Source: a virus
DNA: 61,953 bases
Direction: 5' to 3' (one strand)
IMG/VR virus record: IMGVR_UViG_3300021197_001137
Location: 1 to 61,953 of that record
Numbering within the stretch: the first letter of the stretch is position 1; every line of letters starts with the position of its first letter. The position numbers were made by a program, and so were the translations under genes. The notes under the pieces are model-generated. The model worked only from the letters and a program-made list of their open reading frames with translations. It was not told where the DNA came from and did not search any database. Below, piece by piece: positions 15,464 to 33,121 of the stretch.

Positions 15464-16216
15464 CTAAAGATAATCAATCACTTGAGTTGCGTCAACGTTA
15501 GCGATAAGACAGTCAATAGCTTCTTTTTTAATTTGAGAAACTATCACTGTTGCAGTAGGAACTTTTAAATTTATATAGTCTGCTATTTCTTTAGCCGAAT
15601 GTTTATCACAATCTAATCCGTAAAATAATCTAACAACATCATATTGCTTTTGGGTTAGGTGTTCTTTCATTAAGCTAAGTAAATATGCATTAAGTATATT
15701 TATATTATAGGGTTCTGAATTATCTGCAAGCTGGTAGGCCATGTGTTCATCATCATTGTCGGTAGGGACATCGTAGCTTGTGAATATACTATTAAAGAAT
15801 AGCGAAACCATTTTATCATCATCCGGGTTTTTTCTAATCTCTTGTAGCTTGTGTTCAGGTATTTTAATATCACCTCGATTAATATCTATTGCGCGTCTTA
15901 TTGATCCTTTAATTCTTTTACTAAAGAAACTTTTTAAAGTTTTTTCAATATCTTCAGAATCAATTAATAGATCCCAATCTAATTTGTCTACCGCCATTAT
16001 TAAACCTTTGTTTCCTTCTTGTATTAAATCGTTAATACTTAAAACGCCGGAAGCTTGTTGTGAGGTTGAAAATTTACGAGCTAAGTTTTCTACTAATGGC
16101 ATAAACTTAATTATCATTTCATCTCTAGTATAATAGTCGTAAAACTTTTCAGGAGGCATAGAAGCTTTTAAATCTTCTTTATATCTTATATAGTTTTGTA
16201 TGTTATATTTTTTCAT
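15464..16216 (-). CDS. RNA polymerase sigma factor (sigma-70 family)
   Basis: 250 residues. Region 2 at about 30-115: MPLVENLARKFS, INDLIQEGNKGLIMAVDKLD (core-binding and -10 helix) and RIKGSIRRAIDINRGDIKIP. Region 4 at about 185-240: LTQKQYDVVRLFYGLDCDKHSAKEIADYINL with a recognition helix VPTATVIVSQIKKEAI. It lacks region 1.1. It could redirect host RNA polymerase to phage promoters. Its own promoter-like element ends only 4 bases before the ATG, implying a very short or leaderless mRNA. Confidence 0.9.
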   Translation of the reverse strand: MKKYNIQNYIRYKEDLKASMPPEKFYDYYTRDEMIIKFMPLVENLARKFSTSQQASGVLSINDLIQEGNKGLIMAVDKLDWDLLIDSEDIEKTLKSFFSKRIKGSIRRAIDINRGDIKIPEHKLQEIRKNPDDDKMVSLFFNSIFTSYDVPTDNDDEHMAYQLADNSEPYNINILNAYLLSLMKEHLTQKQYDVVRLFYGLDCDKHSAKEIADYINLKVPTATVIVSQIKKEAIDCLIANVDATQVIDYL

Positions 16217-16220
16217 CTTT

Positions 16221-16256
16221 TATATTATCGAAACAAGATCGTTTTTAGTTTGCAAA
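16221..16256 (-). promoter_or_regulatory. Early promoter element 1 (before the sigma factor gene)
   Basis: Minus-strand TTTGCAAAC (16256-16248), central ACG, and CGATAATATA (16230-16221), separated by exactly 18 bases between the TTTGCAAA and CGATA boxes. It overlaps the last codons (FAN-stop) of the upstream HTH gene. The sigma ATG is at 16216, so the transcript may be leaderless. Confidence 0.8.
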
Positions 16257-16880
16257 CGGATTAACTTGTTGATTAAGTAATTCTTTTTCTTTTTTAAGTT
16301 CGTTACTCATATTTCTATATATGGTTCTAGTTGAACAACCTAAAGTATCTGCTAATTTAGCAACAGTTATTTTAATTTCATTGTCGTTTATTAATAGCAT
16401 TGCATCGTATATTTCATTTTCAGTAATGCCTTTACGACCGACTAACTTGCCAACTATAGAAAGCTTTTGTCGCATATCTAAACCGGTAAAGTCTTTAAAT
16501 ATAACTTTGCGCAGTTTATTAGGTGGTGGTTTTTCTAAATCCATAAGAGATACATCGTACACCATACTTTGTAGCAATTGATCTGATACTTTAAATGTTA
16601 CAAATCCTGTTCGCTTATCACATATGTATTTAGCTAACGCATTAAAGCCTTCTTGATCCAACTGAGGATTAAGATACCATAATACATACAAATGCCATTT
16701 AAGGCTCCTATATGTATTTATTTTGGCTCGTGAGTTGAACAGTGTATAGCATTGGTGCGTGCCGTCTTCGTAGTGCCATCCCCAATCAAATGTTTGTGTT
16801 GGTCTATCGGTTATAGGGTTTCGCCTGTATATTATACGATGCCTCTCTAGGTATTTGGTATTTCGGTCGTATTGTGACAT
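16245..16880 (-). CDS. HTH DNA-binding protein, probable transcription or replication regulator
   Basis: 211 residues. The C-terminal third (about 150-200) has a clear helix-turn-helix: ITVAKLADTLGCSTRTIYRNMS, followed by a charged helix KKEKELLNQQ. The N-terminal part (TFDWGWHYEDGTHQCYTLFN, RSLKWHLYVLWYLNPQ) is unassigned. The gene is just upstream of the sigma gene, and its last codons form the TTTGCAAAC box of that gene's promoter. A repeat TGTGACATTAGGTTGTTA overlaps its own start codon (16873-16890) and recurs at 22949 and 24666, so autoregulation is plausible. Confidence 0.75.
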   Translation of the reverse strand: MSQYDRNTKYLERHRIIYRRNPITDRPTQTFDWGWHYEDGTHQCYTLFNSRAKINTYRSLKWHLYVLWYLNPQLDQEGFNALAKYICDKRTGFVTFKVSDQLLQSMVYDVSLMDLEKPPPNKLRKVIFKDFTGLDMRQKLSIVGKLVGRKGITENEIYDAMLLINDNEIKITVAKLADTLGCSTRTIYRNMSNELKKEKELLNQQVNPFAN

Positions 16881-16919
16881 TAGGTTGTTACTATTAATTA
16901 TATATTATCTATCGTCGCA

Positions 16920-17141
16920 TTAGTAGATTAAAATCTTTAATCTTCTGTTGTACTTTCTTAAAAGCTTTGCTTTATTTTCTATGTTGCCATGCAAAACAGT
17001 TATGTTTTTATTAAAACTATATTCTCCTTTGAATGAAGCAGATACTATCTCATTATGAAGTAGTAGTATTCTGTTTTCTAGAAACCTTACGTGCTTTACT
17101 TTTCTTCTGTTCTTTTTGTATCTTCGTATTAATGTTTGCAT
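16920..17141 (-). CDS. Small highly basic protein (73 aa)
   Basis: MQTLIRRYKKNRRKVKHVRF at the N-terminus, then a helical charged body ending KLLRKYNRRLKILIY. Very Lys/Arg-rich, so possibly nucleic-acid binding. It overlaps the preceding gene's end by 13 bases, which supports translation by coupling. Unrecognised. Confidence 0.6.
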   Translation of the reverse strand: MQTLIRRYKKNRRKVKHVRFLENRILLLHNEIVSASFKGEYSFNKNITVLHGNIENKAKLLRKYNRRLKILIY

Positions 17142-17623
17142 AATTCGTTGATGTTATGTGGTCGTATAATTTTTTGCTCATCTTTATTTTTTACTGTGTG
17201 TTTTTCGTTTTCGTAATAATTCCAATATCCCAACACGCTGTTGCCCGATACTTTGTATTGATCAGGCATACATTGTGGTGGTTGCTTAAATTCATCATTA
17301 GGTATATTGTTAGGCAATGTGTATAGCAAATCACGGCACTTAGTTATTGTTAAGTGATGTTTGCCATACCGCTTAGTATATTCTTGACCCAAAGCCAGCA
17401 TGTGCTCATAAGCCCACATATACGCTTCAGCCGAGGATCTTACCCATATAGCTGAAGGGTGGTTTTTATGTGTAGCTTTGTACGGTATATCAATGTTGGA
17501 ACCAAGCTCGTGATGTGCCGTACATAATAATTGTGCGGTTTCAAGAATCATTTTAACAACGTGCTTGTTGTATTGATATTGTGCTGCTTTCTTAGGGTCG
17601 TGAGACAAATAAAAGATATTCAT
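17129..17623 (-). CDS. Conserved phage protein, pyrimidine-dimer glycosylase-like (Pyr_excise type)
   Basis: 164 residues beginning MNIFYLSHDPKKAAQYQYNKHVVKMILETAQLL, then HKNHPSAIWVRSSAEAYMW, RYGKHHLT and PPQCMPDQYKVSGNSVLGYWNYY. I know this architecture from many marine phages, where it is often labelled pyrimidine dimer DNA glycosylase (Pyr_excise). The annotation by family is moderate and the chemistry here unproven. If right, it repairs UV damage, useful in sunlit water. It carries a GTGTATAGCA copy at 17319-17328. Confidence 0.65.
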   Translation of the reverse strand: MNIFYLSHDPKKAAQYQYNKHVVKMILETAQLLCTAHHELGSNIDIPYKATHKNHPSAIWVRSSAEAYMWAYEHMLALGQEYTKRYGKHHLTITKCRDLLYTLPNNIPNDEFKQPPQCMPDQYKVSGNSVLGYWNYYENEKHTVKNKDEQKIIRPHNINELCKH

Positions 17624-17624
17624 A

Positions 17625-17915
17625 TTAAAGTCTTTTAAGTTTATTTTCTAGTATTTTTAATTTGTTATGTATTATAGCTGCTTTTTCGTATTGTTCATTT
17701 TCTTCGTAAGATGACAATAGGGTCATAAGTCTAGCTATCTCAGCGAGTATTAACTCTTCTTCATTAACTAATCTAGCATTACCAAAACCGTCTTGTGTTA
17801 GTTCATTAAGATCTGTTGTAAACTGTTGATCCCATTCTTTTTGCTTTTCTATAAGCCCTTCTAACACTAATTCAGCAACGCGATTAGCTAATTTTTCTAG
17901 TTCTTCTTCGTTCAT
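17625..17915 (-). CDS. Coiled-coil protein with UVR-like motif (96 aa)
   Basis: Acidic helical protein: MNEEELEKLANRVAELVLEG, then EEELILAEIARLMTLLSSYEENEQYEKAAIIHNKLKILENKL, which resembles the UVR interaction motif of UvrB/UvrC-type proteins (yEkAA-x-x-x-x-k-I). It starts one base into the stop of the upstream KTSC gene and ends one base before the glycosylase-like gene. The function is unknown; a repair-protein contact is speculation. Confidence 0.6.
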   Translation of the reverse strand: MNEEELEKLANRVAELVLEGLIEKQKEWDQQFTTDLNELTQDGFGNARLVNEEELILAEIARLMTLLSSYEENEQYEKAAIIHNKLKILENKLKRL

Positions 17916-18142
17916 TAATTTAATTTAGTATAAGTAAATTTACCTAATATAAATTGATTTAAAAATTTACCTTTAGAACCAGATTCAAATAAACCTCGCC
18001 AAAAGAATAGAGGTATACTAGAATATTTGTATATACCATCGTTGGTAAAATAAACTATCATTTCATTTTTGTTTAAATTGTACTCAGCACTACTTATAGC
18101 GGTTGAGTCGTCAATCATAAGTGTTTCAATTGTGTTTGCCAT
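17915..18142 (-). CDS. KTSC-domain protein (75 aa)
   Basis: Fits the small KTSC domain: SSAEYNLNKNEMIVYFTNDGIYKYSSIP followed by FESGSKGKFLNQFI. KTSC domains occur alone in phages or fused to lysyl-tRNA synthetase and nucleases, and may bind RNA; no specific role is known here. First gene after promoter element 2; its ATG lies 14 bases from the ATAATATA box. Confidence 0.75.
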   Translation of the reverse strand: MANTIETLMIDDSTAISSAEYNLNKNEMIVYFTNDGIYKYSSIPLFFWRGLFESGSKGKFLNQFILGKFTYTKLN

Positions 18143-18156
18143 ATTTATTTATTTAT

Positions 18157-18192
18157 TATATTATCTATTATTATTCGTATTATGTTTGCAAA
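18157..18192 (-). promoter_or_regulatory. Early promoter element 2
   Basis: Minus strand TTTGCAAAC, ACG and AGATAATATA with the same 18-base spacing as the other nine; this is the only copy with AGATA instead of CGATA. It lies between the Gp88-like gene stop (18193) and the KTSC gene. Confidence 0.75.
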
Positions 18193-18798
18193 TTAATGGA
18201 ATACTAATCCCACTTTGTTAGTTCTATTAAACCATCTTGTGGCGTAGAGGTCAACAGATGAAGCATCAGTATAGCCAGCAGATACAAGATCGCTATGACT
18301 AGAAAAGATTTTGGTATGTCTGTGTTTTCTTTCATTTATTAAATGTTTTTGTTTACCTGAGTCACTAAATATGATATCGTAATTATCTGGTAATGAAGAC
18401 TTTAGAATCATATCGATCATATTGGTATAACTGTAAAACCGCACGTCCGGATTGTGTATAGCAATCTCTATCCACTTTTTTAGATATGCGCGAGAGTAGT
18501 AATCGCCACTATCATGGACTCTGACGTAATCAGGTTTCTTCTTACGTATTTCAGCGTTCATAGCTTCGACAAAGTTGTCAGTCTTTGTTAACTGATAACG
18601 CTTTTCAAACGCCGGTTTTACATTAGACCAGATGTAGGCTCCTTTCTTGGCATAACAGAATTTAACGCAACTGTCAGCCATGGGGCACGTCAGTTTCCCG
18701 CTAGCAGATTTGTAGGCAGGAATACCGAAGTTAAAAACCCGAAGCCCGAGTTCTTTAGATGTCTTTTTTAATTTAGAGTTTTGAGTAAGTAAATTCAT
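18193..18798 (-). CDS. Gene 88-like phage protein (Cys motif)
   Basis: 201 residues. Starts MNLLTQNSKLKKTSKELGL, followed by TCPMADSCVKFCYAKKGAYIW (C-x5-C-x3-CYA), VRVHDSGDYYSRAYLKKWIEIA and FYSYTNM. This pattern matches the phage 'Gene 88' family (mycobacteriophage gp88 and relatives) as I remember it; the cysteine cluster suggests metal or Fe-S binding. Function unknown. It carries a GTGTATAGCA copy at 18454-18463. Confidence 0.65.
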   Translation of the reverse strand: MNLLTQNSKLKKTSKELGLRVFNFGIPAYKSASGKLTCPMADSCVKFCYAKKGAYIWSNVKPAFEKRYQLTKTDNFVEAMNAEIRKKKPDYVRVHDSGDYYSRAYLKKWIEIAIHNPDVRFYSYTNMIDMILKSSLPDNYDIIFSDSGKQKHLINERKHRHTKIFSSHSDLVSAGYTDASSVDLYATRWFNRTNKVGLVFH

Positions 18799-18800
18799 AA

Positions 18801-19064
18801 TTAATCTAATAATACCATATAAGCTTCTGAGTTGTTCGATCTAAACCAACTAAGTGCTTTATGAAATTCACTAATTTGTTTTCTTGTTACGGTTTTAGGT
18901 GCAACCTCCATGACATACTGAGTACCCATTATAAAATCGTACATAGATAACTCGACGTTATTTAGTGTATAGCATTCGCCACTGAAAACGTTTTGTACTT
19001 CATCGCCTTTGTCGTATATTATACCTTTAAACCATGCAGGTAACTTTGTTTTATTCTTCGTCAT
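18801..19064 (-). CDS. Conserved phage protein of unknown function (87 aa)
   Basis: The start is set at 19062-19064 (MTKNKTKLPAWFKGIIY), because the longer frame to 19100 only adds codons inside the upstream gene. Core: GDEVQNVFSGECYTLNNVELSMYDFIMGTQ then TVTRKQISEFHKALSWFRSNN...AYMVLLD, a pattern I associate with marine phage and cyanophage small proteins. It overlaps the upstream gene by 14 bases. The dispersed word GTGTATAGCA is at 18965-18974. Confidence 0.65.
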   Translation of the reverse strand: MTKNKTKLPAWFKGIIYDKGDEVQNVFSGECYTLNNVELSMYDFIMGTQYVMEVAPKTVTRKQISEFHKALSWFRSNNSEAYMVLLD

Positions 19065-19407
19065 TGTCTTGTACTTTAAATACTGATTCAACATAGTCAC
19101 ATATAGCTTCTTCTAAATCGTCGGTGTAATTAAACTCTAAACTACCCAATTCTAGCTGGTTGTTATAGTTAATCTCAAAGTCATACTCGTAGTTATCTGT
19201 ATTGCTAAAGTCATAATTACTTACGGCTTCATAAACCTGTTGACGCATGGCGTCACGAGTTTCTTTAGTTATTACTGGTTTACTTACATCTTCAAGATCT
19301 TGTGTTGCTTGATTAAGTTGTTTTTGAAGTTCGTCTTGATCGGTTTTAAATTGAGCTAACGCTGCGGTTAACTCTTTTACTTTTAATTCTAATTGTTCTT
19401 TAGTCAT
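19051..19407 (-). CDS. Coiled-coil acidic protein (118 aa)
   Basis: N-terminal half is a coiled coil (MTKEQLELKVKELTAALAQF...LQKQLNQATQDLED); the C-terminal half is acidic and aromatic (YDFEINYNNQLELGSLEFNY, DDLEEAICDYVESVF). No known domain. Operon neighbour 3 bases from the next upstream gene. Confidence 0.6.
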   Translation of the reverse strand: MTKEQLELKVKELTAALAQFKTDQDELQKQLNQATQDLEDVSKPVITKETRDAMRQQVYEAVSNYDFSNTDNYEYDFEINYNNQLELGSLEFNYTDDLEEAICDYVESVFKVQDNDEE

Positions 19408-19410
19408 GAT

Positions 19411-19629
19411 TTATAATTTATTATTTAATTCTATTATTTTAGCGATATATTTCCATACTTCACGATCACGTAAAGTACCAGTATACAATAAAGCCATTTG
19501 TTCGTGATCTAAACCACCATATAATTTATTTTGAATATCGCTTTTTAATCGGTCAATATCAAAATTTAACATGGCTATTTTAGCGAAGGCTTTATTGCTT
19601 GCTCGTTCTTGTAATTCGGTATTACTCAT
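19411..19629 (-). CDS. Small helical protein (72 aa)
   Basis: MSNTELQERASNKAFAKIAM then LNFDIDRLKSDIQNKLYGG and LRDREVWKYIAKIIELNNKL. Predicted mostly helical, charged and soluble. Overlaps the upstream gene by 8 bases, consistent with coupled translation. Unrecognised. Confidence 0.55.
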   Translation of the reverse strand: MSNTELQERASNKAFAKIAMLNFDIDRLKSDIQNKLYGGLDHEQMALLYTGTLRDREVWKYIAKIIELNNKL

Positions 19630-19876
19630 AATCTTTTGAGATTAAGATGTTGTCACCGTACTTAAAATCCCACGCTGAAACTTTGATAAGCTCAAGGTTG
19701 GAAAACGTGTATAGCGAGCTAATGTCACTAATTTTTAAGTTTTGATAAAACGTAGTGCTTGAGAAAGCTTCAACTATGCTTTCCACACTTGTTTGATACT
19801 TTGCATTTTCAGGTGAATGTAATGCTTCTTTGATTTCAGGTCTTAGCCTTTCGTAAACTGTAAGTCTTCTACTCAT
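19622..19876 (-). CDS. Small protein of unknown function (84 aa)
   Basis: MSRRLTVYERLRPEIKEALH, then a Ser/Thr-rich middle and LYTFSNLELIKVSAWDFKYG. First gene after promoter element 3, with a leader of AAATTAAATTAAATAAAT before the ATG, typical of Bacteroidetes genes lacking a Shine-Dalgarno. A GTGTATAGCG variant of the dispersed word is at 19707-19716. Unrecognised. Confidence 0.55.
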   Translation of the reverse strand: MSRRLTVYERLRPEIKEALHSPENAKYQTSVESIVEAFSSTTFYQNLKISDISSLYTFSNLELIKVSAWDFKYGDNILISKDYE

Positions 19877-19896
19877 ATTTATTTAATTTAATTTAT

Positions 19897-19932
19897 TATA
19901 TTATCGTTACTCTGTCGTATTTTGTTTGCAAA
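19897..19932 (-). promoter_or_regulatory. Early promoter element 3
   Basis: TTTGCAAAC (from 19932), ACG and CGATAATATA (to 19897) on the minus strand with 18-base spacing; drives the genes from 19876 downward. Confidence 0.8.
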
Positions 19933-19933
19933 A

Positions 19934-20137
19934 TTAATCTTGGTATCTTTTAAGTGTCATACTATTTACCTTATTAATGATTTCATTACCCACTGAAGTG
20001 AAATAACCAGGTGCATATATAGATCTTTTACCATCAGCCTCAGCGGCTAATACATCTTTTTCTGCTTCTTCGATAGCGTGTCTTAACGCTGTTTGTATGA
20101 AATACTTTTCAAATCCGTTAAATTTAGTTTTACTCAT
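19934..20137 (-). CDS. Small helical protein (67 aa)
   Basis: MSKTKFNGFEKYFIQTALRH then AIEEAEKDVLAAEADGKRS and GYFTSVGNEIINKVNSMTLK. A soluble helical protein; similar short proteins are seen in marine phages, function unknown. It lies between the 3' end of the structured RNA (about 20157) and promoter element 3, so it may be read from the RNA's promoter. Confidence 0.55.
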   Translation of the reverse strand: MSKTKFNGFEKYFIQTALRHAIEEAEKDVLAAEADGKRSIYAPGYFTSVGNEIINKVNSMTLKRYQD

Positions 20138-20156
20138 TTTATTTAATTTTAAATTA

Positions 20157-20545
20157 GTGGACGTGGCAGGAATCGAACCTGCGTTTTCAAAGGGTAATAA
20201 CTATTGAGTGTTTTTAGATTCCTGAGTTCATAACGATCCCTCGCCAGTTCACTTGCATTATCACTCGCATTACTACTCGATACTTTGAGCTAACCATTTC
20301 ACGCCCAAATACCCAGACATTTCCTAAGCGCGGTGCACCACTGTCGTTAAACCGGTGCGCGTCTTTGTTATTTATTCGCTGGGTTTGCTAGCTATTCACT
20401 TATGTAATTTAGGTACCATTTATCGTGGTATCTTTACGGTATATACCCACCTAAATCCTAATTAAGTTACTCGTCTAGCTATTTACGTCGCCAAGCTCTG
20501 TGAACACTAACAGATACTTTTTGGCTGACGATAGTTATTTATTTT
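20157..20545 (-). ncRNA. Candidate structured RNA with a tRNA-like 3' end
   Basis: About 390 bases without a supportable gene, starting just after promoter element 4. The 3' end carries a canonical T-arm (stem GCAGG/CCTGC, loop TTCGATT, 20163-20185 region) followed by CACGTCC and a discriminator A. Inside are strong helices: ATTTAGGT/ACCTAAAT closing GGTATATACC and TACCA-CGATAAA-TGGTA hairpins (20408-20457), and CAAACCCAG pairing with CTGGG-TATTTG. A distal pairing CTGTTAGTG (near 20510) with CACT-C-AATAG (near 20200) resembles the long P2 helix of tmRNA. I find no standard tag peptide ending in LAA and no clean GGACGTG 5' acceptor strand. A GGGCGTG at 20304-20298 could pair with CACGTCC (one G-U), giving a 149-base tRNA-like unit. 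Possibilities: divergent tmRNA, interrupted tRNA, or a new tRNA-like RNA. Confidence 0.6.
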
Positions 20546-20554
20546 TTGTTCATA

Positions 20555-20590
20555 TATATTATCGTATAGGTGACGTTTTACGTTTGCAAA
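20555..20590 (-). promoter_or_regulatory. Early promoter element 4 (drives the structured RNA)
   Basis: TTTGCAAAC, ACG and CGATAATATA at standard 18-base spacing. The first supportable gene downstream is 400 bases away, so the element appears dedicated to the noncoding RNA. Confidence 0.8.
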
Positions 20591-20591
20591 T

Positions 20592-20780
20592 TTACATCTT
20601 CCTAGTTTGATGGTACATAATTTCGATCGCTCGTTGCATTGTCTCAGCGTGTATAGCAACGTAATCATCGCCATCTGCCTCATATTCAGATAGTTGCCAA
20701 TCTACGCTATCATACATTAGTTCTAGTGTAACGTCAGCAACACCTTGCGCTACTTCGTTAAGGTTTATTTTTTCAGTCAT
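20592..20780 (-). CDS. Small acidic protein (62 aa)
   Basis: The start is set at 20778-20780 (MTEKINLNEVAQGVADVTLE), which overlaps the preceding gene's stop by 8 bases; a frame extending to 20825 merely reads through that gene. The rest is acidic (WQLSEYEADGDDYVAIHAET). GTGTATAGCA copy at 20649-20658. Function unknown. Confidence 0.55.
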   Translation of the reverse strand: MTEKINLNEVAQGVADVTLELMYDSVDWQLSEYEADGDDYVAIHAETMQRAIEIMYHQTRKM

Positions 20781-20940
20781 ATTCATAAATTTCTGGGTCG
20801 GTATGTGCCATCCACTCGATACCACTTAACCTAAAACCCCGGTCAATAATTACTTCTTCATATCCTTCGGTACTCATACCCTCTAATACTTCTATACGAG
20901 ATACGAGACCATTTTCAAAATCTAATATTGTTATATACAT
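20773..20940 (-). CDS. Small acidic protein (55 aa)
   Basis: A short gene with ATG at 20938-20940 encoding MYITILDFENGLVSRIEVLE then GYEEVIIDRGFRLSGIEWMA and a final acidic tail. It ends within the start of the next gene and begins 5 bases after the stop of the preceding one, fitting the operon. Similar 'MYxTIxDYE' mini-proteins occur in marine phages as far as I recall; no role known. Confidence 0.55.
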   Translation of the reverse strand: MYITILDFENGLVSRIEVLEGMSTEGYEEVIIDRGFRLSGIEWMAHTDPEIYEYD

Positions 20941-20945
20941 GGTGT

Positions 20946-21140
20946 TTAGAATAATGAGGAGTATACTTCCTCGTTAACAAAATCATAGTGCTCATCATTG
21001 ATGAAGTCTATTTCTTTTTCACTTAGCTCTCTACCGTCATAGTTTGCGGCTACTAAAAATGCATCTACAAAATCTGGGTAGTCTGCGAAATCGATCCCGT
21101 CGAATTCCATATTTTCTACTTTTCTTAAATCTAATTTCAT
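20946..21140 (-). CDS. Small acidic protein (64 aa)
   Basis: Very acidic: DGIDFADYPDFVDAFLVAAN and LSEKEIDFINDEHYDFVNEE. Resembles short acidic proteins of marine phages (pattern D-Y-P-D-F-x-D-A). Unknown role; acidic mimicry of DNA is possible but speculative. One base from the next upstream gene. Confidence 0.6.
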   Translation of the reverse strand: MKLDLRKVENMEFDGIDFADYPDFVDAFLVAANYDGRELSEKEIDFINDEHYDFVNEEVYSSLF

Positions 21141-21141
21141 A

Positions 21142-21417
21142 CTATTTACAGTTTTCTTCGTTAAAATCTAGTAATCTTCTTACTCGATCGGCATGGTTAG
21201 GTATTAACTTTCTTTCATAGTTAAACCCCCACTTGCTTTTTGGGTCATACCAGTTTTTAGTTTGTCTATTTATTTGGTACATTAACCGTTTTTTGTGGTA
21301 ATAGTTATCTGATTTAGTAGATACTCTTACATAACCACTAGGGTAAGTTGCACCAATTCTTCCATCACTCAATTTAAAATGTAGAGCTCCATCTTTAGTT
21401 ACTTTAATTAATTCCAT
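21142..21417 (-). CDS. Small protein of unknown function (91 aa)
   Basis: MELIKVTKDGALHFKLSDGR then IGATYPSGYVRVSTKS, a basic aromatic stretch (NYYHKKRLMYQINRQTKNWY) and a charged C-terminus. The beta-rich N-terminal half could be a small barrel. Overlaps the upstream gene by 10 bases. Unrecognised. Confidence 0.55.
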   Translation of the reverse strand: MELIKVTKDGALHFKLSDGRIGATYPSGYVRVSTKSDNYYHKKRLMYQINRQTKNWYDPKSKWGFNYERKLIPNHADRVRRLLDFNEENCK

Positions 21418-21638
21418 CTTTTCGTATTATCTTTTAAATAGTTAATATTAGGGTTTGCATCTATACTTTTAGCGACACTTTGCCTTAATTCCCACTCACG
21501 TTTGCGATAAACGGGATCGGTACACCACTTTTTCCAGGCTTTACTTACTTGTTTTTCACCGTATTTTGCTTCAAACTCTTTAACTTGTTTGAGTTTAGCG
21601 GCGATCTGGTCGGCTGGGTAATCTTTATACTGGGACAT
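21408..21638 (-). CDS. Small basic protein (76 aa)
   Basis: The start is chosen at 21636-21638 (MSQYKDYPADQIAAKLKQVK), because the longer frame to 21779 lies wholly inside the upstream gene. Helical and basic: EFEAKYGEKQVSKAWKKWCT, DPVYRKREWELRQSVAKSID. Overlaps its upstream neighbour by 14 bases. Unrecognised. Confidence 0.55.
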   Translation of the reverse strand: MSQYKDYPADQIAAKLKQVKEFEAKYGEKQVSKAWKKWCTDPVYRKREWELRQSVAKSIDANPNINYLKDNTKRWN

Positions 21639-21819
21639 AGGTGAATCCTTTATAGTTAAACCAGTTTGTAATACCGTCTTGGTCTTTGTCTTCATTATAT
21701 ATAAAGGCAAATGTGTTTGGTAAATTACCGATAGTGTACGGTTTGTATTGTGTACCGTTGAGGTGAATGTGTATAGCACCTGTAGTACTATCTTTCTTAA
21801 ATTTAATTGTGTTCGTCAT
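21625..21819 (-). CDS. Small protein of unknown function (64 aa)
   Basis: Start at 21817-21819 (MTNTIKFKKDSTTGAIHIHL), preceded by an A/T leader (TTAAAACTATTATG). Beta-rich: NGTQYKPYTIGNLPNTFAFI then NWFNYKGFTYVPV. GTGTATAGCA copy at 21769-21778 read as A-I-H codons. Unrecognised. Confidence 0.5.
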   Translation of the reverse strand: MTNTIKFKKDSTTGAIHIHLNGTQYKPYTIGNLPNTFAFIYNEDKDQDGITNWFNYKGFTYVPV

Positions 21820-21836
21820 AATAATAGTTTTAATAA

Positions 21837-21926
21837 TTAATACCAAGTTGTTTCAGAAGGAGCCTTACCTACTTCTATTTTTATACTTTTTATTTTAAGT
21901 ATTACAGTGTGAATAAATTTTCTCAT
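21837..21926 (-). CDS. Possible mini-protein (29 aa)
   Basis: ATG at 21924-21926, eight bases past the ATAATATA box of promoter element 5, encoding MRKFIHTVILKIKSIKIEVG and ending SETTWY. Amphipathic and basic. The position immediately downstream of a promoter is the main support; it could also be a leader peptide. Confidence 0.4.
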   Translation of the reverse strand: MRKFIHTVILKIKSIKIEVGKAPSETTWY

Positions 21927-21934
21927 ATTTTTAT

Positions 21935-21970
21935 TATATTATCGTTAGGTGTTCGTTTTTAGTTTGCAAA
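21935..21970 (-). promoter_or_regulatory. Early promoter element 5
   Basis: TTTGCAAAC, ACG and CGATAATATA at 18-base spacing on the minus strand; the TTTGCAAAC box encodes the last codons (FAN-stop) of the upstream gene. Confidence 0.8.
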
Positions 21971-22258
21971 TTTGAATTCTTTAATATATACTTTTTTACC
22001 TGTTACTTCTTGTACACCACCATTTACTGCTTTTACAACAGATCGAATTAGGTGCATTGGGCTATTATAGTCATATATACAATCTGGTAAGTTAGGTCCA
22101 CGCCATCCACATTGCATGTTACTTATAGCGAAGCTTGTACCTTGGCTATTGGTGAAACTATAACCCACCATTCCGCTTTCGTTTTCGTACACAAATAGTG
22201 TTTTAGGGTTCGATCCACTGCGTTGTGCAGTATTTACTTTAGCAATTAGTTTTCTCAT
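21959..22258 (-). CDS. Small protein of unknown function (99 aa)
   Basis: MRKLIAKVNTAQRSGSNPKT then LFVYENESGMVGYSFTNSQG, MQCGWRGPNLPDCIYDYNSP and a basic C-terminus ending KEFKFAN. Beta-rich with two or three Cys. The last four codons form promoter element 5, so gene end and promoter are fused. Unrecognised. Confidence 0.55.
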   Translation of the reverse strand: MRKLIAKVNTAQRSGSNPKTLFVYENESGMVGYSFTNSQGTSFAISNMQCGWRGPNLPDCIYDYNSPMHLIRSVVKAVNGGVQEVTGKKVYIKEFKFAN

Positions 22259-22260
22259 AA

Positions 22261-22515
22261 TTATATAGTTTTAAAAGTTTTTTCATGATAAAAGGTGTGA
22301 ATACGGTTTGAGAATTTTTGGTCACTCCAGAGCTTGGTGTGGGAATAAGTTCTGCCTTTACTACCAGCACCTTTACTTTTAACTCTCAGACGAAAGTATT
22401 CTTTCTCCGTCAACCCGCTACAGAAATCACCTTTAGTTACTTCTAATCGGTGCTTGCGGTTCTTCTCTATTCTTGAGTTTTTAACGTACTCACACGCTTC
22501 TTTCATTGTCATCAT
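22261..22515 (-). CDS. Small basic protein (84 aa)
   Basis: MMTMKEACEYVKNSRIEKNR then KHRLEVTKGDFCSGLTEKEY and SKGAGSKGRTYSHTKLWSDQ. Highly basic with a Gly/Lys-rich middle; ATGs at residues 1, 2 and 4 make the exact start uncertain. Separated by 2 bases from the downstream gene. Unrecognised. Confidence 0.55.
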   Translation of the reverse strand: MMTMKEACEYVKNSRIEKNRKHRLEVTKGDFCSGLTEKEYFRLRVKSKGAGSKGRTYSHTKLWSDQKFSNRIHTFYHEKTFKTI

Positions 22516-22518
22516 AAT

Positions 22519-22602
22519 CTACTTATTATTGTTTATTAGCCACATTAACTGTGCATACTCTTCATACTCTAATTCACTATTAAATCCGTAATATTCTTTC
22601 AT
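22519..22602 (-). CDS. Possible mini-protein (27 aa)
   Basis: ATG at 22600-22602, encoding MKEYYGFNSELEYEEYAQLM and ending WLINNNK. It sits exactly between two neighbours (2 bases from the upstream stop, 3 from the downstream start), which supports it. Acidic, helical, unrecognised. Confidence 0.45.
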   Translation of the reverse strand: MKEYYGFNSELEYEEYAQLMWLINNNK

Positions 22603-22604
22603 AA

Positions 22605-22808
22605 TTACTTTGTTGTAAAGGTTGATGGAAATTGGGATACCATAAATTTCGCTAAGCCTAATCCGTCGTTTGCCTGCTCCGCTATGTATTTAGCGATATT
22701 ATCTTGCATTTCAAATAAGTCATCTTGGCAATATTGGTCACACAAGAAGAATCGGTCGTTACCCATTAACTCACAAAGTTTAGTGATAAATAATACATTT
22801 TTAGTCAT
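22605..22808 (-). CDS. Small protein of unknown function (67 aa)
   Basis: MTKNVLFITKLCELMGNDRF then FLCDQYCQDDLFEMQDNIAK and YIAEQANDGLGLAKFMVSQF. Three Cys and a helical amphipathic C-terminus. First gene after promoter element 6. Unrecognised. Confidence 0.55.
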   Translation of the reverse strand: MTKNVLFITKLCELMGNDRFFLCDQYCQDDLFEMQDNIAKYIAEQANDGLGLAKFMVSQFPSTFTTK

Positions 22809-22832
22809 AATAGTTGTTATTTTAAATTCATA

Positions 22833-22868
22833 TATATTATCGATTCGGTGACGTAATTTGTTTGCAAA
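22833..22868 (-). promoter_or_regulatory. Early promoter element 6
   Basis: Minus-strand TTTGCAAAC, ACG, CGATAATATA at the constant 18-base spacing; located 24 bases upstream of the 22808 start codon. Confidence 0.8.
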
Positions 22869-22981
22869 AAAGTATACACTTTGTTTAGTAGTAAAAATAG
22901 TAGTACAGGTATTACTCTCTATCTCTAAGTACCTAAAAAAAAATATACTGTGACAATAGGTTGTTAAGTATAATATAGTAA

Positions 22982-23059
22982 CTAGCTAATGTCGCACTTT
23001 TCTTCGTGCCCTTCGTCTACCGAAAGTTCTTTTTGATCGTATTTCACCGTGTATAGCAT
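22982..23059 (-). CDS. Weak mini-gene candidate (25 aa or longer)
   Basis: From ATG 23057-23059 the frame encodes MLYTVKYDQKELSVDEGHEE and ends KCDIS. The frame is open upstream for about 25 more codons without an ATG (a TTG start is possible). The GTGTATAGCA words here fall on Leu-Tyr-Thr codons. No RBS or coupling evidence. Confidence 0.25.
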   Translation of the reverse strand: MLYTVKYDQKELSVDEGHEEKCDIS

Positions 23060-23155
23060 TTCGAAACACTCACGTAGGACGGAGTCTACTCTTCCGGTGT
23101 ATAGCAAATATACCCAGGCCAAAAAGATCTGTTTATTTATTTACCCATCAAGGTA

Positions 23156-23213
23156 GTGTCGGGCACTCACTTTCGTGAGGTAGAGTTTTATGGTCATTCA
23201 CCAACCCGAACAC
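23156..23213 (-). ncRNA. Structured 3'UTR or small RNA element
   Basis: On the minus-strand transcript, 18 bases after the stop of the 23232-23540 gene: an outer stem GTG-T-TCGGG / CCCGA-CAC (8 bp, one bulged T; 23213-23205 with 23163-23156) enclosing a hairpin CTCAC-GAAA-GTGAG with a GNRA tetraloop (23079-side stem at 23175-23179 and 23166-23170). No U-run follows, so it is not a plain terminator; a stability or regulatory element is possible. Confidence 0.5.
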
Positions 23214-23231
23214 CCCTGAGGGAAAGTAAAC

Positions 23232-23540
23232 CTATTTTTCAAGGTCTACTCTATCAATTACTACTTGTCTCACATTACTTGGCATATCAGTACTTTGAGA
23301 CCAATACCCTCTTTTAATCCAACAAGGCATGATGTTTAGTTTAGGTAACATTACTTTTAATACCTCATCATGATTATAGGTAATCTTTTGATTTTTGTTG
23401 TTGGTAAAGGTAATGATTTGATTTCTACCGTACCAACTTTTTCTTACCACAAAGTTTTTTCGAGTGATTGGTGGAAAGATTGCTGATAATTCTTTCTTTG
23501 ATAGTTTTGAAATTGATTTGTTTAATAATTCAGTGTTCAT
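23232..23540 (-). CDS. Small basic protein (102 aa)
   Basis: MNTELLNKSISKLSKKELSA then RKNFVVRKSWYGRNQIITFT and NHDEVLKVMLPKLNIMPCWI. Basic with alternating beta and helical segments, no membrane segment. First full-length gene after promoter elements 7 and 8, with a 40-base A/T leader. Unrecognised. Confidence 0.6.
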   Translation of the reverse strand: MNTELLNKSISKLSKKELSAIFPPITRKNFVVRKSWYGRNQIITFTNNKNQKITYNHDEVLKVMLPKLNIMPCWIKRGYWSQSTDMPSNVRQVVIDRVDLEK

Positions 23541-23581
23541 AATTTATTGTATTTAAAGATTAATATTTATTTATTTTCATT

Positions 23582-23617
23582 TATATTATCGAATACTATT
23601 CGTACTTTGTTTGCAAA
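23582..23617 (-). promoter_or_regulatory. Early promoter element 7
   Basis: TTTGCAAAC, ACG, CGATAATATA at 18-base spacing; drives the 23540 gene. It is 52 bases downstream of element 8, so the two act in tandem. Confidence 0.8.
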
Positions 23618-23669
23618 TTTGGTTTTATTATTTTAATTTTAGTATTCATAGTTTTATTTGTTATTCATA

Positions 23670-23705
23670 TATATTATCGAAAACTATACGTACTACGTTT
23701 GCAAA
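23670..23705 (-). promoter_or_regulatory. Early promoter element 8 (tandem with element 7)
   Basis: Same three-box element. Directly upstream of it on the minus strand are three GTATAGCA words (23737-23707), the core of the dispersed motif. Between elements 8 and 7 an ATG at 23647-23649 opens a 17-codon leader frame (MNTKIKIIKPNLQTKYE) that reads through element 7. Confidence 0.8.
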
Positions 23706-23706
23706 G

Positions 23707-23737
23707 TGCTATACGCAGTATGCTATACATGCTATAC
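23707..23737. repeat. Triple GTATAGCA cluster
   Basis: Plus-strand TGCTATAC at 23707, 23721 and 23730, i.e. three minus-strand GTATAGCA copies within 31 bases, adjacent to the TTTGCAAA box of promoter element 8 and in opposite orientation to the dispersed copies. Looks like a protein-binding cluster. Confidence 0.7.
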
Positions 23738-23810
23738 GCGTTGCGTACCGCGGAGTATACTCTTCCGCTCCTATTTCAAAAGCAGGCCGTAAGCCAGGAT
23801 CCCGAACCTG

Positions 23811-23981
23811 TTACTGATCCAGGATCTCGACGCCGATCACTTTGCTCGTGATCTCATTGCTGTAGCACACACGCAGATAGTTATCCAGATGCTGCTCGTT
23901 GCTGAACCGAACCACGCGACTGTTGTAGTTGCCGCGCCAGTTCTTCGTGTCGATACGAACCAGCATTCTAGTAGAAGTCAT
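23811..23981 (-). CDS. Small protein in GC-rich patch (56 aa)
   Basis: ATG at 23979-23981 encodes MTSTRMLVRIDTKNWRGNYN then SRVVRFSNEQHLDNYLRVCY and SNEITSKVIGVEILDQ. Overlaps the upstream mini-gene by 14 bases (coupled). Codons end in C/G far more often than in neighbouring genes (for example runs of CTG, AAC, CAG, ATC), so this gene looks compositionally foreign. Function unknown. Confidence 0.6.
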   Translation of the reverse strand: MTSTRMLVRIDTKNWRGNYNSRVVRFSNEQHLDNYLRVCYSNEITSKVIGVEILDQ

Positions 23982-24087
23982 AGTATATATCCAGCACTTC
24001 AGATCGTTGCTCAGATGTTAATTTCGAATAGCACTTCTTGTAGATTCGCATGCTAATTTTGTAAAGGGTGTAAGAATAGTTTGACAT
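23968..24087 (-). CDS. Small basic protein (39 aa)
   Basis: ATG at 24085-24087, encoding MSNYSYTLYKISMRIYKKCY then SKLTSEQRSEVLDIYYDFY. First gene after promoter element 9, with an A/T-rich leader. Part of the GC-rich cluster. Similar 'YYxxxY' mini-proteins may exist in marine phages; no function known. Confidence 0.5.
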   Translation of the reverse strand: MSNYSYTLYKISMRIYKKCYSKLTSEQRSEVLDIYYDFY

Positions 24088-24114
24088 AATTATTATTTTT
24101 ATTTGTTATACATT

Positions 24115-24150
24115 TATATTATCGTTGTTTACTCGTGTTGCGTTTGCAAA
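24115..24150 (-). promoter_or_regulatory. Early promoter element 9
   Basis: TTTGCAAAC, ACG, CGATAATATA at 18-base spacing, between the membrane mini-protein stop (24154) and the 24087 start. Confidence 0.8.
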
Positions 24151-24153
24151 GCT

Positions 24154-24312
24154 CTAGCCGTAGATGCCAAAGCTGGATGGAGCGCCGTGCTCGATCATGT
24201 GCGCTACGATCGCGATCAGGCTCAGGCCGATGAATGCTGTCGTGCCGTATACCACGATGCCAGCTGCGATGTTAATGATCTTGTTGTGGTGGAATGTTCT
24301 ATTAGTTTTCAT
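24154..24312 (-). CDS. Small membrane protein (52 aa), first early gene
   Basis: The ATG at 24310-24312 is chosen over upstream in-frame ATGs that lie inside promoter element 10. Encodes MKTNRTFHHNKIINIAAGIV, then a hydrophobic helix (about residues 14-38, VVYGTTAFIGLSLIAIVAHM) and a short tail EHGAPSSFGIYG. It is the first gene of the early arm, so likely expressed immediately on infection. A host-takeover or superinfection-exclusion role is speculation based on position and topology. Confidence 0.6.
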   Translation of the reverse strand: MKTNRTFHHNKIINIAAGIVVYGTTAFIGLSLIAIVAHMIEHGAPSSFGIYG

Positions 24313-24334
24313 AAGTATTATTTTTTTATTCATA

Positions 24335-24370
24335 TATATTATCGAGTGGATAGCGTAGTACGTTTGCAAA
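24335..24370 (-). promoter_or_regulatory. Early promoter element 10 (outermost)
   Basis: TTTGCAAAC, ACG, CGATAATATA at 18-base spacing; the most upstream copy, bordering the divergent control region. Confidence 0.8.
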
Positions 24371-31564: not shown

Positions 31565-33121
31565 ATGGAATTTAATAATCCTAGTGATATTGTAAAAACA
31601 CTAACCTTTGGTAAAAGTGCAAAGGAACAAATAATGCAAGGCGTTGAAAAATTATCAAACGCAGTAAAGAGCACCTTGGGTGCATCTGGAAAATGCGTGA
31701 TTTATGAAGACGCTCTTGGCCGACCGGTAATAACAAAAGACGGAGTAACCGTTGCAGACAGCGTAGTCTTATTACATCCGGTTGAAAACATAGGGGCAAC
31801 TCTTATAAAAGAAGCCGCTAATAACACAGTAAAAGAAGCAGGCGACGGTACGACTACGGCCACCGTTCTAGCCGACTCATTATTAAAAATTGCTAACGAA
31901 AAGTTACATGAAGAAAAAGTTAGAGACATTAAAGCAGGCATTCTTAGTTGTGCTGATAAAATTAAAATACATCTTGATAAGACCAGTACTCCTGTTAAGG
32001 GCGCTATGCTTAAGAACGTTGCTATTATTAGCTGCAACAACGACGAAGAACTTGGAACCAAAATTGGAGAAGCTTACGAAAAAGTTGGACCTAATGGAGT
32101 CATATTAATGGAGGAGTCTGAAACAAATGAAACATATGTTGATTTTGTTGAAGGCGCTCAATTTGATTCTAAAATTAAATCACCTCATTTAGCTACTGAC
32201 AAAGATAAAGGAACATCTACTTTAGATAATCCTTTAGTTCTTATAGTTTCATCGCCGATACCCAATATCAGGAGAATACAAAATGTTTTAGAACATGCCA
32301 TAAAAAATAAAAGAAGCTTATTAATTGTAGCCGAGGTAGAACAACAACCATTTGCAACATTAGTTGCTAATAAGGTAAAAGGCAATATAAGAGTTAATAT
32401 TGTAGACCCTCCTGGCTTTGGGCCAACAAGAGTTAAGTCAATAGAAGATTTAGCAATATTGACAGGAGCCACAGTTATAAACGAAGAGCTAGGCGATGAT
32501 TTAGATTTAATAGATGTATCAGTACTAGGGGAAGCGGTAAAGTCCGTTACAGACGACAAGAGCACTGTTCTACAGGTTCATGAACCAGACAACGAGGTTA
32601 AAGAAAGAATAAAATTAGTAGAAAGCAAAATAAAAGAAGAAACAAACCCGTTTTTTAGAAAAAAATTAGAGCAAAGGTTGTCAATGCTAACCGGCCGTGT
32701 AGGCATTATAAAAGTAGGAGGAAACTCTAAGGTTGAATTAAAAGAAAAAAAAGATAGGGTAGAAGACGCTATTTATGCAACAAAGGCAGCTTATAAAGAA
32801 GGCATTGTTGCTGGCGGCGGTGTAGCTTTACTAAATGCTTCTAAAAAAATTAAACCAGCTAATAAAGGAGAAGAGATTTTGCTTAAAGCGATACAAGCTC
32901 CTTATTACACAATATTAGATAACGCTGGTATAGTTGAAATAAAAAAGCCAACAACAAAAAATAGGGGTATTGATGTTAAAACCGGCAAGGAAGTTAATAT
33001 GCTTACCGCTGGGATTATAGACCCCGTGTTGGTAACAAAGTCAGCCCTTAAAAACGCAGTTAGTGTTGTAACCACCATAATATCTGCTGATTGCGTAATA
33101 AGTAATAAAAGACTAGCGTAA
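31565..33121 (+). CDS. groEL: GroEL-like chaperonin (phage-encoded)
   Basis: 518 residues, a full Cpn60 (cellular GroEL about 548). ATP-site motifs: ITKDGVTVADSV, AGDGTTTATVLAD, and VEDAIYATKAAYKEGIVAGG near the C-terminus. The apical region is present, but the Gly-Met tail of bacterial GroEL is missing. The divergent sequence (for example IISCNNDEELGTKIGEAYEK) argues for long residence in phages rather than recent capture. The groES-like gene follows with TAATG overlap. It presumably folds abundant or difficult virion proteins, replacing or supplementing host GroEL. Confidence 0.95.
   Translation: MEFNNPSDIVKTLTFGKSAKEQIMQGVEKLSNAVKSTLGASGKCVIYEDALGRPVITKDGVTVADSVVLLHPVENIGATLIKEAANNTVKEAGDGTTTATVLADSLLKIANEKLHEEKVRDIKAGILSCADKIKIHLDKTSTPVKGAMLKNVAIISCNNDEELGTKIGEAYEKVGPNGVILMEESETNETYVDFVEGAQFDSKIKSPHLATDKDKGTSTLDNPLVLIVSSPIPNIRRIQNVLEHAIKNKRSLLIVAEVEQQPFATLVANKVKGNIRVNIVDPPGFGPTRVKSIEDLAILTGATVINEELGDDLDLIDVSVLGEAVKSVTDDKSTVLQVHEPDNEVKERIKLVESKIKEETNPFFRKKLEQRLSMLTGRVGIIKVGGNSKVELKEKKDRVEDAIYATKAAYKEGIVAGGGVALLNASKKIKPANKGEEILLKAIQAPYYTILDNAGIVEIKKPTTKNRGIDVKTGKEVNMLTAGIIDPVLVTKSALKNAVSVVTTIISADCVISNKRLA

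What the first reader, a model, noticed from the sequence alone, without database searches (positions are those of the whole stretch)
20157..20545. Unclassified 390-base structured RNA with a tRNA T-arm and acceptor-like 3' end
It has its own promoter, no gene, several long helices and a canonical T-arm (GCAGG TTCGATT CCTGC) followed by CACGTCC-A. The layout and length resemble tmRNA, including a possible long P2-type pairing between the 5' and 3' parts. But the expected 5' acceptor strand and an LAA-type tag peptide are not seen. A 149-base sub-unit from GGGCGTG (20304) to the 3' end could also close as an oversized tRNA-like fold. It may be a divergent phage tmRNA, an intron-bearing tRNA, or a new tRNA-mimic RNA.
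Basis: partly seen in the sequence, partly recalled or inferred. Interest (0 to 1): 0.75.

Follow-up and report, generated by a model that had tools for sequence, protein, structure and literature searches.

The report
Phage tRNA-like RNA with swappable hairpins
A group of bacterial viruses carries a previously undescribed RNA that ends in a mock tRNA (of the type found in tmRNA, but without its message part) and holds folded hairpin pieces that the viruses appear to swap among themselves like building blocks.

Summary
The feature is real, on the minus strand. Its 3' part (20306-20155) is a complete tRNA-like domain (TLD): 7-bp acceptor GGGCGTG/CACGTCC with a G3:U70 wobble and A73, a 10-nt D-like stretch without a D stem, a long arm in place of the anticodon arm, and a T-arm. 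About 105 units were found, mostly in one clade of 50-70 kb phages related to Flavobacterium/Cellulophaga podophages; pairing in the arm covaries strongly. It scores better as tmRNA than as tRNA, but below Rfam's tmRNA cut-off, and has no tag ORF: a tmRNA-type TLD without its message, not a tmRNA. The arm and the hairpins upstream are nested, interchangeable modules: the same helix sits in the TLD arm of one phage and in a free upstream hairpin of another. The TLD often follows a 62-aa zinc-ribbon-like gene; here about 45 codons of that gene are deleted while its promoter and the RNA remain. Best explanation: a tRNA-processed, probably alanylatable natural 'tRNA scaffold' holding swappable RNA payloads. 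Expression, processing and payload function are inferred, not shown.

The parts
20555..20590 (-). Promoter-like element TTTGCAAAC-N18-GATAATATA shared with other early/middle units of this phage
   Evidence: 10 exact copies in the window, all minus strand, 0.27 expected at up to 3 mismatches; conserved leader before the 62-aa gene in relatives
20479..20532 (-). Remnant of a 62-aa Cys4 zinc-ribbon-like gene: last codons and TAG stop; about 45 codons deleted from the start codon on, with an AT microhomology at the junction
   Evidence: Homology of leader and of gene 3' end meets at 20531/20532; tblastn only to residues 31-62 with a stop inside; no excess synonymous constraint
20387..20479 (-). 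Hairpin module A: adapter GACGAGTAACTTAATTAGG ... ACATAAGTGAAT carrying plug M (about 20457-20406)
   Evidence: Found in many relatives with different plugs; covariation of the flanking helices; plug M also in TLD arms of L009/L011/L022/L105
20311..20384 (-). Hairpin module C: ACCCAGCGAATAAATAAC ... TTAGGAAATGTCTGGGT, carrying plug P (GACGCGCACCGGT ... AGTGGTGCACCGCGC)
   Evidence: 97% identical in L034, 91% in L002; plug P also found in another adapter in L071
20155..20306 (-). tRNA-like domain of tmRNA type (whole unit, including the CTA trailer 20157-20155)
   Evidence: tmRNA model 1-374, 32.3 bits, E 3e-11, below gathering; family of 105 units; model R1
20300..20306 (-). 5' acceptor strand GGGCGTG (G3 pairs with U70)
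   Evidence: 7 bp with 20165-20159; G:U third pair in 56 of 58 units
20290..20299 (-). D-like linker AAATGGTTAG, no D stem
   Evidence: Near-constant in the family; 10 nt, tmRNA linkers are 10-13 nt (PMC1168896)
20186..20289 (-). Long P2-type arm (in place of an anticodon arm): outer helix TCAAAG/CTTTGA, module H, plug I
   Evidence: 20284-20191 is 98% identical to a free upstream hairpin in L042; arm pairs covary in the family
20166..20182 (-). T-arm GCAGG-TTCGATT-CCTGC
   Evidence: Direct reading; T stem 100% paired in 58 units
20158..20165 (-). 3' acceptor strand CACGTCC and discriminator A (A73)
   Evidence: Direct reading; followed by CTA in 82 of 88 units

Best explanation
It is a phage-encoded small RNA that ends in a tmRNA-type tRNA-like domain without a message domain. 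Shown by sequence: the TLD fold with G3:U70 and A73, its spread through a phage clade, covariation of the arm, absence of a tag, a repeated promoter-like element, a tRNA-type 3' trailer, and interchangeable nested helices in the arm and upstream. Inferred: the transcript starts after the element at 20590-20555 and runs through the hairpins to the TLD; host RNase P cuts before G20306; tRNA 3' processing removes the CTA trailer and CCA is added; alanyl-tRNA synthetase can charge it. The TLD then serves as a natural 'tRNA scaffold': a nuclease-resistant frame whose anticodon arm is replaced by payload helices, as in engineered tRNA scaffolds. The payload hairpins diversify by exchange between phages and most likely bind or decoy host factors; that last step is the least certain.
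For: TLD anatomy and tmRNA-over-tRNA scores. 105 units, mostly in one phage clade. Arm covariation: 123 double-change cells against 46 in shuffles. G:U third pair in 56 of 58; L116 changes three acceptor pairs by compensation but keeps G3:U70. G3:U70 is the AlaRS identity element, fully conserved in tmRNA (PMC3985003). Encoded trailer CTA in 82 of 88 units, as in tRNA-Met genes of the same phages. Base before the acceptor A or T in 69 of 72. The same modules occur in TLD arms and in upstream hairpins; adapter A covaries. The window phage lost the adjacent gene but kept promoter and RNA. Engineered tRNA scaffolds stabilise inserts in this way (PMC3753655).
Against: No expression or processing data. 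Cleavage by RNase P before the TLD would separate the upstream hairpins from the scaffold, so for those the scaffold idea needs either no cleavage or another role. The deletion of the neighbouring gene may be recent and prove little. Some unselected long relatives lack the RNA (G055, G070, G073), so it is dispensable.
Confidence: 0.5

Rival explanations
1. The TLD is only a 3'-end processing and stabilising signal: RNase P cuts before it and leaves a defined 3' end on the upstream mRNA or hairpin RNA, which is the functional product (in principle like the mascRNA element of MALAT1).
For: In many relatives the acceptor begins right at or within a few nt of a stop codon; modules lie almost only upstream of the TLD.
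Against: In many relatives there is nothing but a short gene end upstream, and the TLD arm itself carries the same modules as the upstream part, so the arm is more than a signal.
Confidence: 0.2
2. Decoy of trans-translation: the message-less TLD is alanylated and bound by SmpB and EF-Tu and competes with host tmRNA during infection.
For: tmRNA-type TLD with G3:U70; no phage SmpB, so host SmpB would be the partner (0 of 34 contigs).
Against: The D-like loop GGTTAG differs from the tmRNA loop GGTTTCGAC seen in L065/L072/L095, a region in contact with SmpB (PMC3985003); does not explain the swapping modules.
Confidence: 0.13
3. Decoy or sponge for tRNA-targeting host defences or toxins that read the acceptor or T-arm, with the arm free to vary.
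For: tRNA-like half conserved, arm hypervariable; located in a region of small early genes on the minus strand.
Against: No direct evidence for any target; conserved adapters in the variable part suggest specific binding there too.
Confidence: 0.1
4. A working divergent tmRNA, or one piece of a two-piece tmRNA, whose tag lies elsewhere.
For: Full-length alignment to the tmRNA model, 32 bits, E 3e-11; genuine phage tmRNAs with the same acceptor exist in other phages (L065, L072); phage tmRNAs, including two-piece ones, are known (PMC9004378).
Against: No tag in any frame of the window unit or of the 174 nt upstream; relatives of 64-68 nt have no room for one; below gathering.
Confidence: 0.03
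5. A tRNA interrupted by an intron, or a decayed host tmRNA end captured as a phage attachment site.
For: T-arm and acceptor look like a tRNA/tmRNA 3' end.
Against: No anticodon arm or intron-model hit; both acceptor strands are kept; no tyrosine integrase in 31 contigs; arm pairs covary.
Confidence: 0.02

Closest known systems
tmRNA (Rfam RF00023), tRNA-like domain
   Same: Acceptor with G3:U70 and A73, 10-nt linker with GG and no D stem, long P2 arm, T-arm preceded by AC
   Different: No tag ORF, no message domain or pseudoknots, 64-184 nt instead of about 250-425, D-like loop GGTTAG instead of GGTTTCGAC, below the gathering score, interchangeable arm
Mitochondrial tmRNA of jakobids (PMC3985003, PMC1168896)
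   Same: tmRNA TLD that has lost tag and pseudoknots
   Different: Organelle gene; not in phages; no module exchange known to me; here upstream modules and a highly variable arm
Phage tmRNAs (e.g. OM43 phage Melnitz, PMC9004378; L065 and L072 here)
   Same: tmRNA-type TLD encoded by a phage, in L065/L072 with the identical acceptor
   Different: Those carry a message piece or tag (..FALAA in L065/L072); this RNA does not
Engineered tRNA scaffold for RNA expression (PMC3753655)
   Same: tRNA acceptor and T-arm as frame, insert in place of the anticodon arm
   Different: Natural, tmRNA-type linker without D stem, inserts evolved and exchanged among phages
Large phage-associated RNAs such as GOLLD and ROOL (from memory, a lead only)
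   Same: Structured phage RNAs with variable peripheral parts, sometimes near tRNAs
   Different: No Rfam hit to any such family in the window or in 12 module-rich relatives

Membership tests
tmRNA (RF00023) | Score at or above the Rfam gathering score (47 bits) | tested here: not met
   Window 32.3 bits; of 50 contigs only L065, L072 and L095 exceed it
tmRNA (RF00023) | tRNA-like domain with G3:U70, A73, T-arm, no D stem | tested here: met
tmRNA (RF00023) | Resume codon and tag ORF | tested here: not met
   No tag in three frames of the TLD unit or the upstream part; 64-68-nt relatives have no room
tmRNA (RF00023) | Pseudoknots PK1-PK4 | tested here: inconclusive
   Not searched as such; the shortest relatives (64-68 nt) have no room for them
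tmRNA (RF00023) | Alanylation and SmpB binding | not testable with these tools
   Only the identity pair G3:U70 is seen; no phage SmpB
Permuted tmRNA (RF04321) | Acceptor piece and tag piece in permuted order, score at cut-off | tested here: not met
   21.3 bits against 47, T-arm region only; both acceptor strands lie in normal order
tRNA (RF00005) | Cloverleaf with D stem and anticodon arm; score of 29 bits or more | tested here: not met
   ARAGORN none; 14.5 bits, T-arm only, in the window; relatives 14.5-29 bits
Group I or other intron-bearing tRNA | Anticodon arm split by a recognisable intron | tested here: not met
   No intron model in Rfam scans; no anticodon arm
Any other Rfam 15 family | Match at gathering score | tested here: not met
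   None in the window; only two ordinary tRNAs in 12 related loci

The most novel reading that the evidence does not exclude
A new class of phage RNA built from interchangeable, nested hairpin cassettes that plug into shared internal-loop adapters and into a tRNA-like 3' scaffold: an evolving combinatorial RNA payload system, probably acting on host factors, exchanged by recombination across a phage clade.
Probability: 0.45. Interest if true: 0.88.

Novelty: new variant of a known kind. Interest (0 to 1): 0.74.

Why it matters
A tmRNA-type tRNA-like domain lives here without its message in viruses, so the gain or loss of the message domain can be studied outside mitochondria. The RNA also evolves by exchanging whole nested helices between positions while short internal-loop adapters stay fixed, a natural counterpart of the laboratory tRNA scaffold. 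If the payloads act on host proteins, these phages hold a library of natural RNA ligands. The family is absent from Rfam 15 and mostly invisible to tRNA/tmRNA finders.

Tried and rejected
Single-sequence folding of the 390 nt as one unit: z -1.7, no global 5'-3' closure. BLAST against isolated phages: only T-arm matches, mostly to ordinary tRNA genes. Isolates elemoE_6-9C and phi18:3: no hit with R1; phi38:1 and Gundel_1 only weak ones (20-25 bits); MW202828 a weak one that reads as a tRNA-Leu-like gene. The idea that the gene's 3' end belongs to the RNA: no extra synonymous constraint, 0.53 against 0.54. Attachment-site origin: no tyrosine integrase. Phage SmpB: none. Sigma-70/terminator scan: nothing useful. 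Literature searches in the open library found no description of this RNA. Prevalence could not be measured well: most unselected terminase relatives are fragments; of five of 42 kb or more, two carry it. A D-loop pattern meant to free the acceptor mostly fetched class II tRNAs, but also L116.

Full report
WHAT IS THERE. The finding lies on the minus strand. Reading 5' to 3': a promoter-like element (20590-20555), a leader, a 54-nt remnant of a protein gene ending in TAG (20532-20479), two local hairpin modules (20479-20387 and 20384-20311) and a tRNA-like domain (TLD, 20306-20155). ARAGORN, and Rfam at gathering thresholds, find nothing in the whole window. At a relaxed threshold the TLD aligns end to end to the tmRNA model with 32.3 bits, E 3e-11, gathering score 47.

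THE FAMILY. A 24-nt 3' pattern hits 61 stretches of viral contigs, a looser 3' pattern 102, and an independent 5' pattern, GGGCGTGAAATGGTTAG, 36 stretches, nearly all of them the same loci. Among one genome for each of 84,980 bacterial and archaeal species a 28-nt version occurs three times, in MAG contigs that carry the same 62-aa phage gene beside it. I extracted 105 distinct units. Apart from the true tmRNAs they run from 64 to 184 nt, because only the arm between the D-like linker and the T-arm varies. Of 50 sampled contigs 39 have a terminase 68-90% identical to the window's. Cultured relatives by terminase are Flavobacterium (45%), Cellulophaga (38%) and Tenacibaculum (32%) phages; an uncultured podovirus is at 62%.

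STRUCTURE EVIDENCE. On 58 trimmed distinct units (A1) acceptor and T stems are 100% paired and all five P2 pairs change on both sides: 123 double-change cells against 46 in shuffles, covariation score 0.280 against 0.090; sliding the partners destroys it. The third acceptor pair is G:U in 56 of 58. Part of the acceptor conservation is forced by my search patterns, but the 5' strand was free and G3 is kept. L116, found with a pattern that leaves the acceptor free, has GGGTGCG/CGCATCC: three pairs changed by compensation, G3:U70 kept. In tmRNA this pair is fully conserved and is the AlaRS determinant (PMC3985003). The window unit alone is not unusually stable (z -1.4); six short relatives fold better than shuffles (z -1.9 to -3.8).

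tmRNA OR tRNA. At the same places the tmRNA model outscores the tRNA model: window 32.3 against 14.5, G001 37.8 against 26.8, G003 35.6 against 15.6, G009 41.9 against 26.0, G017 45.2 against 27.0, G045 40.2 against 29.0. A 10-nt linker without D stem fits tmRNA (10-13 nt, PMC1168896). Three contigs exceed the tmRNA cut-off: L065 and L072 are true tmRNAs (242 nt, frames ending ..NAKQNQFALAA* and ..NANKNQFALAA*), and L095 is a 136-nt tmRNA-like RNA with the usual GGGTTTCGAC loop but no evident tag. They were fetched through the shared 3' end CACGTCCACTA, so the common acceptor is not independent proof of descent. The window unit has no tag in any frame. Membership in tmRNA therefore fails; resemblance to its TLD stands.

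MODULES. Window 20284-20191, inside the TLD arm, is 98% identical to a separate hairpin upstream of the TLD in L042. Window 20453-20406, in an upstream hairpin, is 77-81% identical to the TLD arms of L009, L011, L022 and L105. Window 20383-20290 is 97% identical in L034. Pattern catalogues show elements I, J, M, N, C and H in both positions, and plug P in two different adapters. Adapter A (GACGAGTAGCTTAATTAGG ... ACATAAGTGAAT) is nearly invariant in its loops while the helices on both sides covary: 44 double-change cells against 12.2 in shuffles, 95.2% of cells paired, including a C:G to G:C swap in the middle helix. Its plug ranges from a 7-nt stub (L030) to 70 nt. Fixed internal loops with exchanged helices are what recombining, structurally selected RNA would give. 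No tyrosine integrase was found in 31 contigs, so ordinary phage recombination is the likely means (inference).

CONTEXT. The TLD often follows, by 0-500 nt, a 62-aa Cys4 protein (..EVSASVHRAWRRK*) without Pfam or PHROG match; in other phages it sits behind other small genes. In the window this gene has lost about 45 codons: the leader and the last 54 nt are joined at an AT microhomology. The last codons show no excess synonymous constraint in relatives, so the remnant is a scar rather than part of the RNA. The motif TTTGCAAAC-N18-GATAATATA occurs 10 times exactly, all on the minus strand (0.27 expected at up to 3 mismatches), so the RNA is expected to be made with the other minus-strand genes (inference); the phage encodes a sigma-factor-like protein (15464-16216).

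PROCESSING. The encoded 3' end is A-CTA in 82 of 88 units (A-CTA was part of the pattern, but not). Many tRNA-Met genes in the same loci also have a discriminator followed by CTA. This points to tRNA-type 3' trimming and CCA addition. The base before the acceptor is A or T in 69 of 72, which RNase P tolerates. None of this is shown biochemically.

MECHANISM. Best explanation: a tRNA-processed, probably alanylatable scaffold that protects structured payloads, the natural analogue of the laboratory tRNA scaffold in which a foreign RNA replaces the anticodon arm (PMC3753655). The payloads probably bind or decoy host factors. Rivals are a processing signal for the upstream transcript, a decoy for SmpB/AlaRS, a decoy for tRNA-targeting defences and, nearly excluded, a working tmRNA. 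A message-less tmRNA TLD has a precedent in jakobid mitochondria. I put the structural and family claims at about 0.9, the scaffold mechanism at 0.5, and a host-factor role of the payloads at 0.4.

LIMITS. No expression data were available. Sampling is biased to units with the CACGTCC 3' strand. Only five long terminase relatives were not chosen by the RNA itself; two have it. The open literature library held no description of this RNA, but most subscription papers are not in it.

Noticed in passing
window 16221-24370 (minus strand): Ten exact copies of TTTGCAAAC-N18-GATAATATA, all on the minus strand: probably the phage's early/middle promoter, perhaps read by its own sigma-factor-like protein (15464-16216).
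   Followed up: partly
L065 and L072 (242-nt units): True phage tmRNAs with tags ending ..NQFALAA and the same acceptor stem as the family, over the Rfam cut-off at about 111-112 bits.
   Followed up: partly
L095, 136-nt unit starting near 3219 (+): tmRNA-like RNA over the Rfam cut-off (52.7 bits) with no evident tag: a possible second message-less tmRNA, outside the window's phage clade.
   Followed up: partly
L009, L025, L034, L037, L071, upstream of the TLD: A second tRNA-like module with T-arm and short acceptor (AACTAG ... TGAGGTTCGAATCCTCA-CTAGTTAC), itself with a variable insert.
   Followed up: partly
L207, L223, L066: Adapter A modules with no family TLD within 600 nt downstream: the hairpin modules may also exist without the tRNA-like end.
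   Followed up: no
L043, L056, L061: A second TLD type with acceptor AGGCGTG/CACGYCT and T as discriminator base, in loci that also hold the main type.
   Followed up: no
L001, L024, L025, L033, L059 and others, gene upstream of the TLD: A conserved 62-aa Cys4 zinc-ribbon-like phage protein without Pfam or PHROG match, ending ..VHRAWRRK*, found in 33 of 48 contigs searched, the window's remnant included.
   Followed up: partly
window 31565-33121 (+): Phage-encoded GroEL-like chaperonin (PF00118, phrog_5725).
   Followed up: no
window 67-4860 (+): 1597-aa protein with only a weak match to a phage polynucleotide kinase family (E 0.00045).
   Followed up: no
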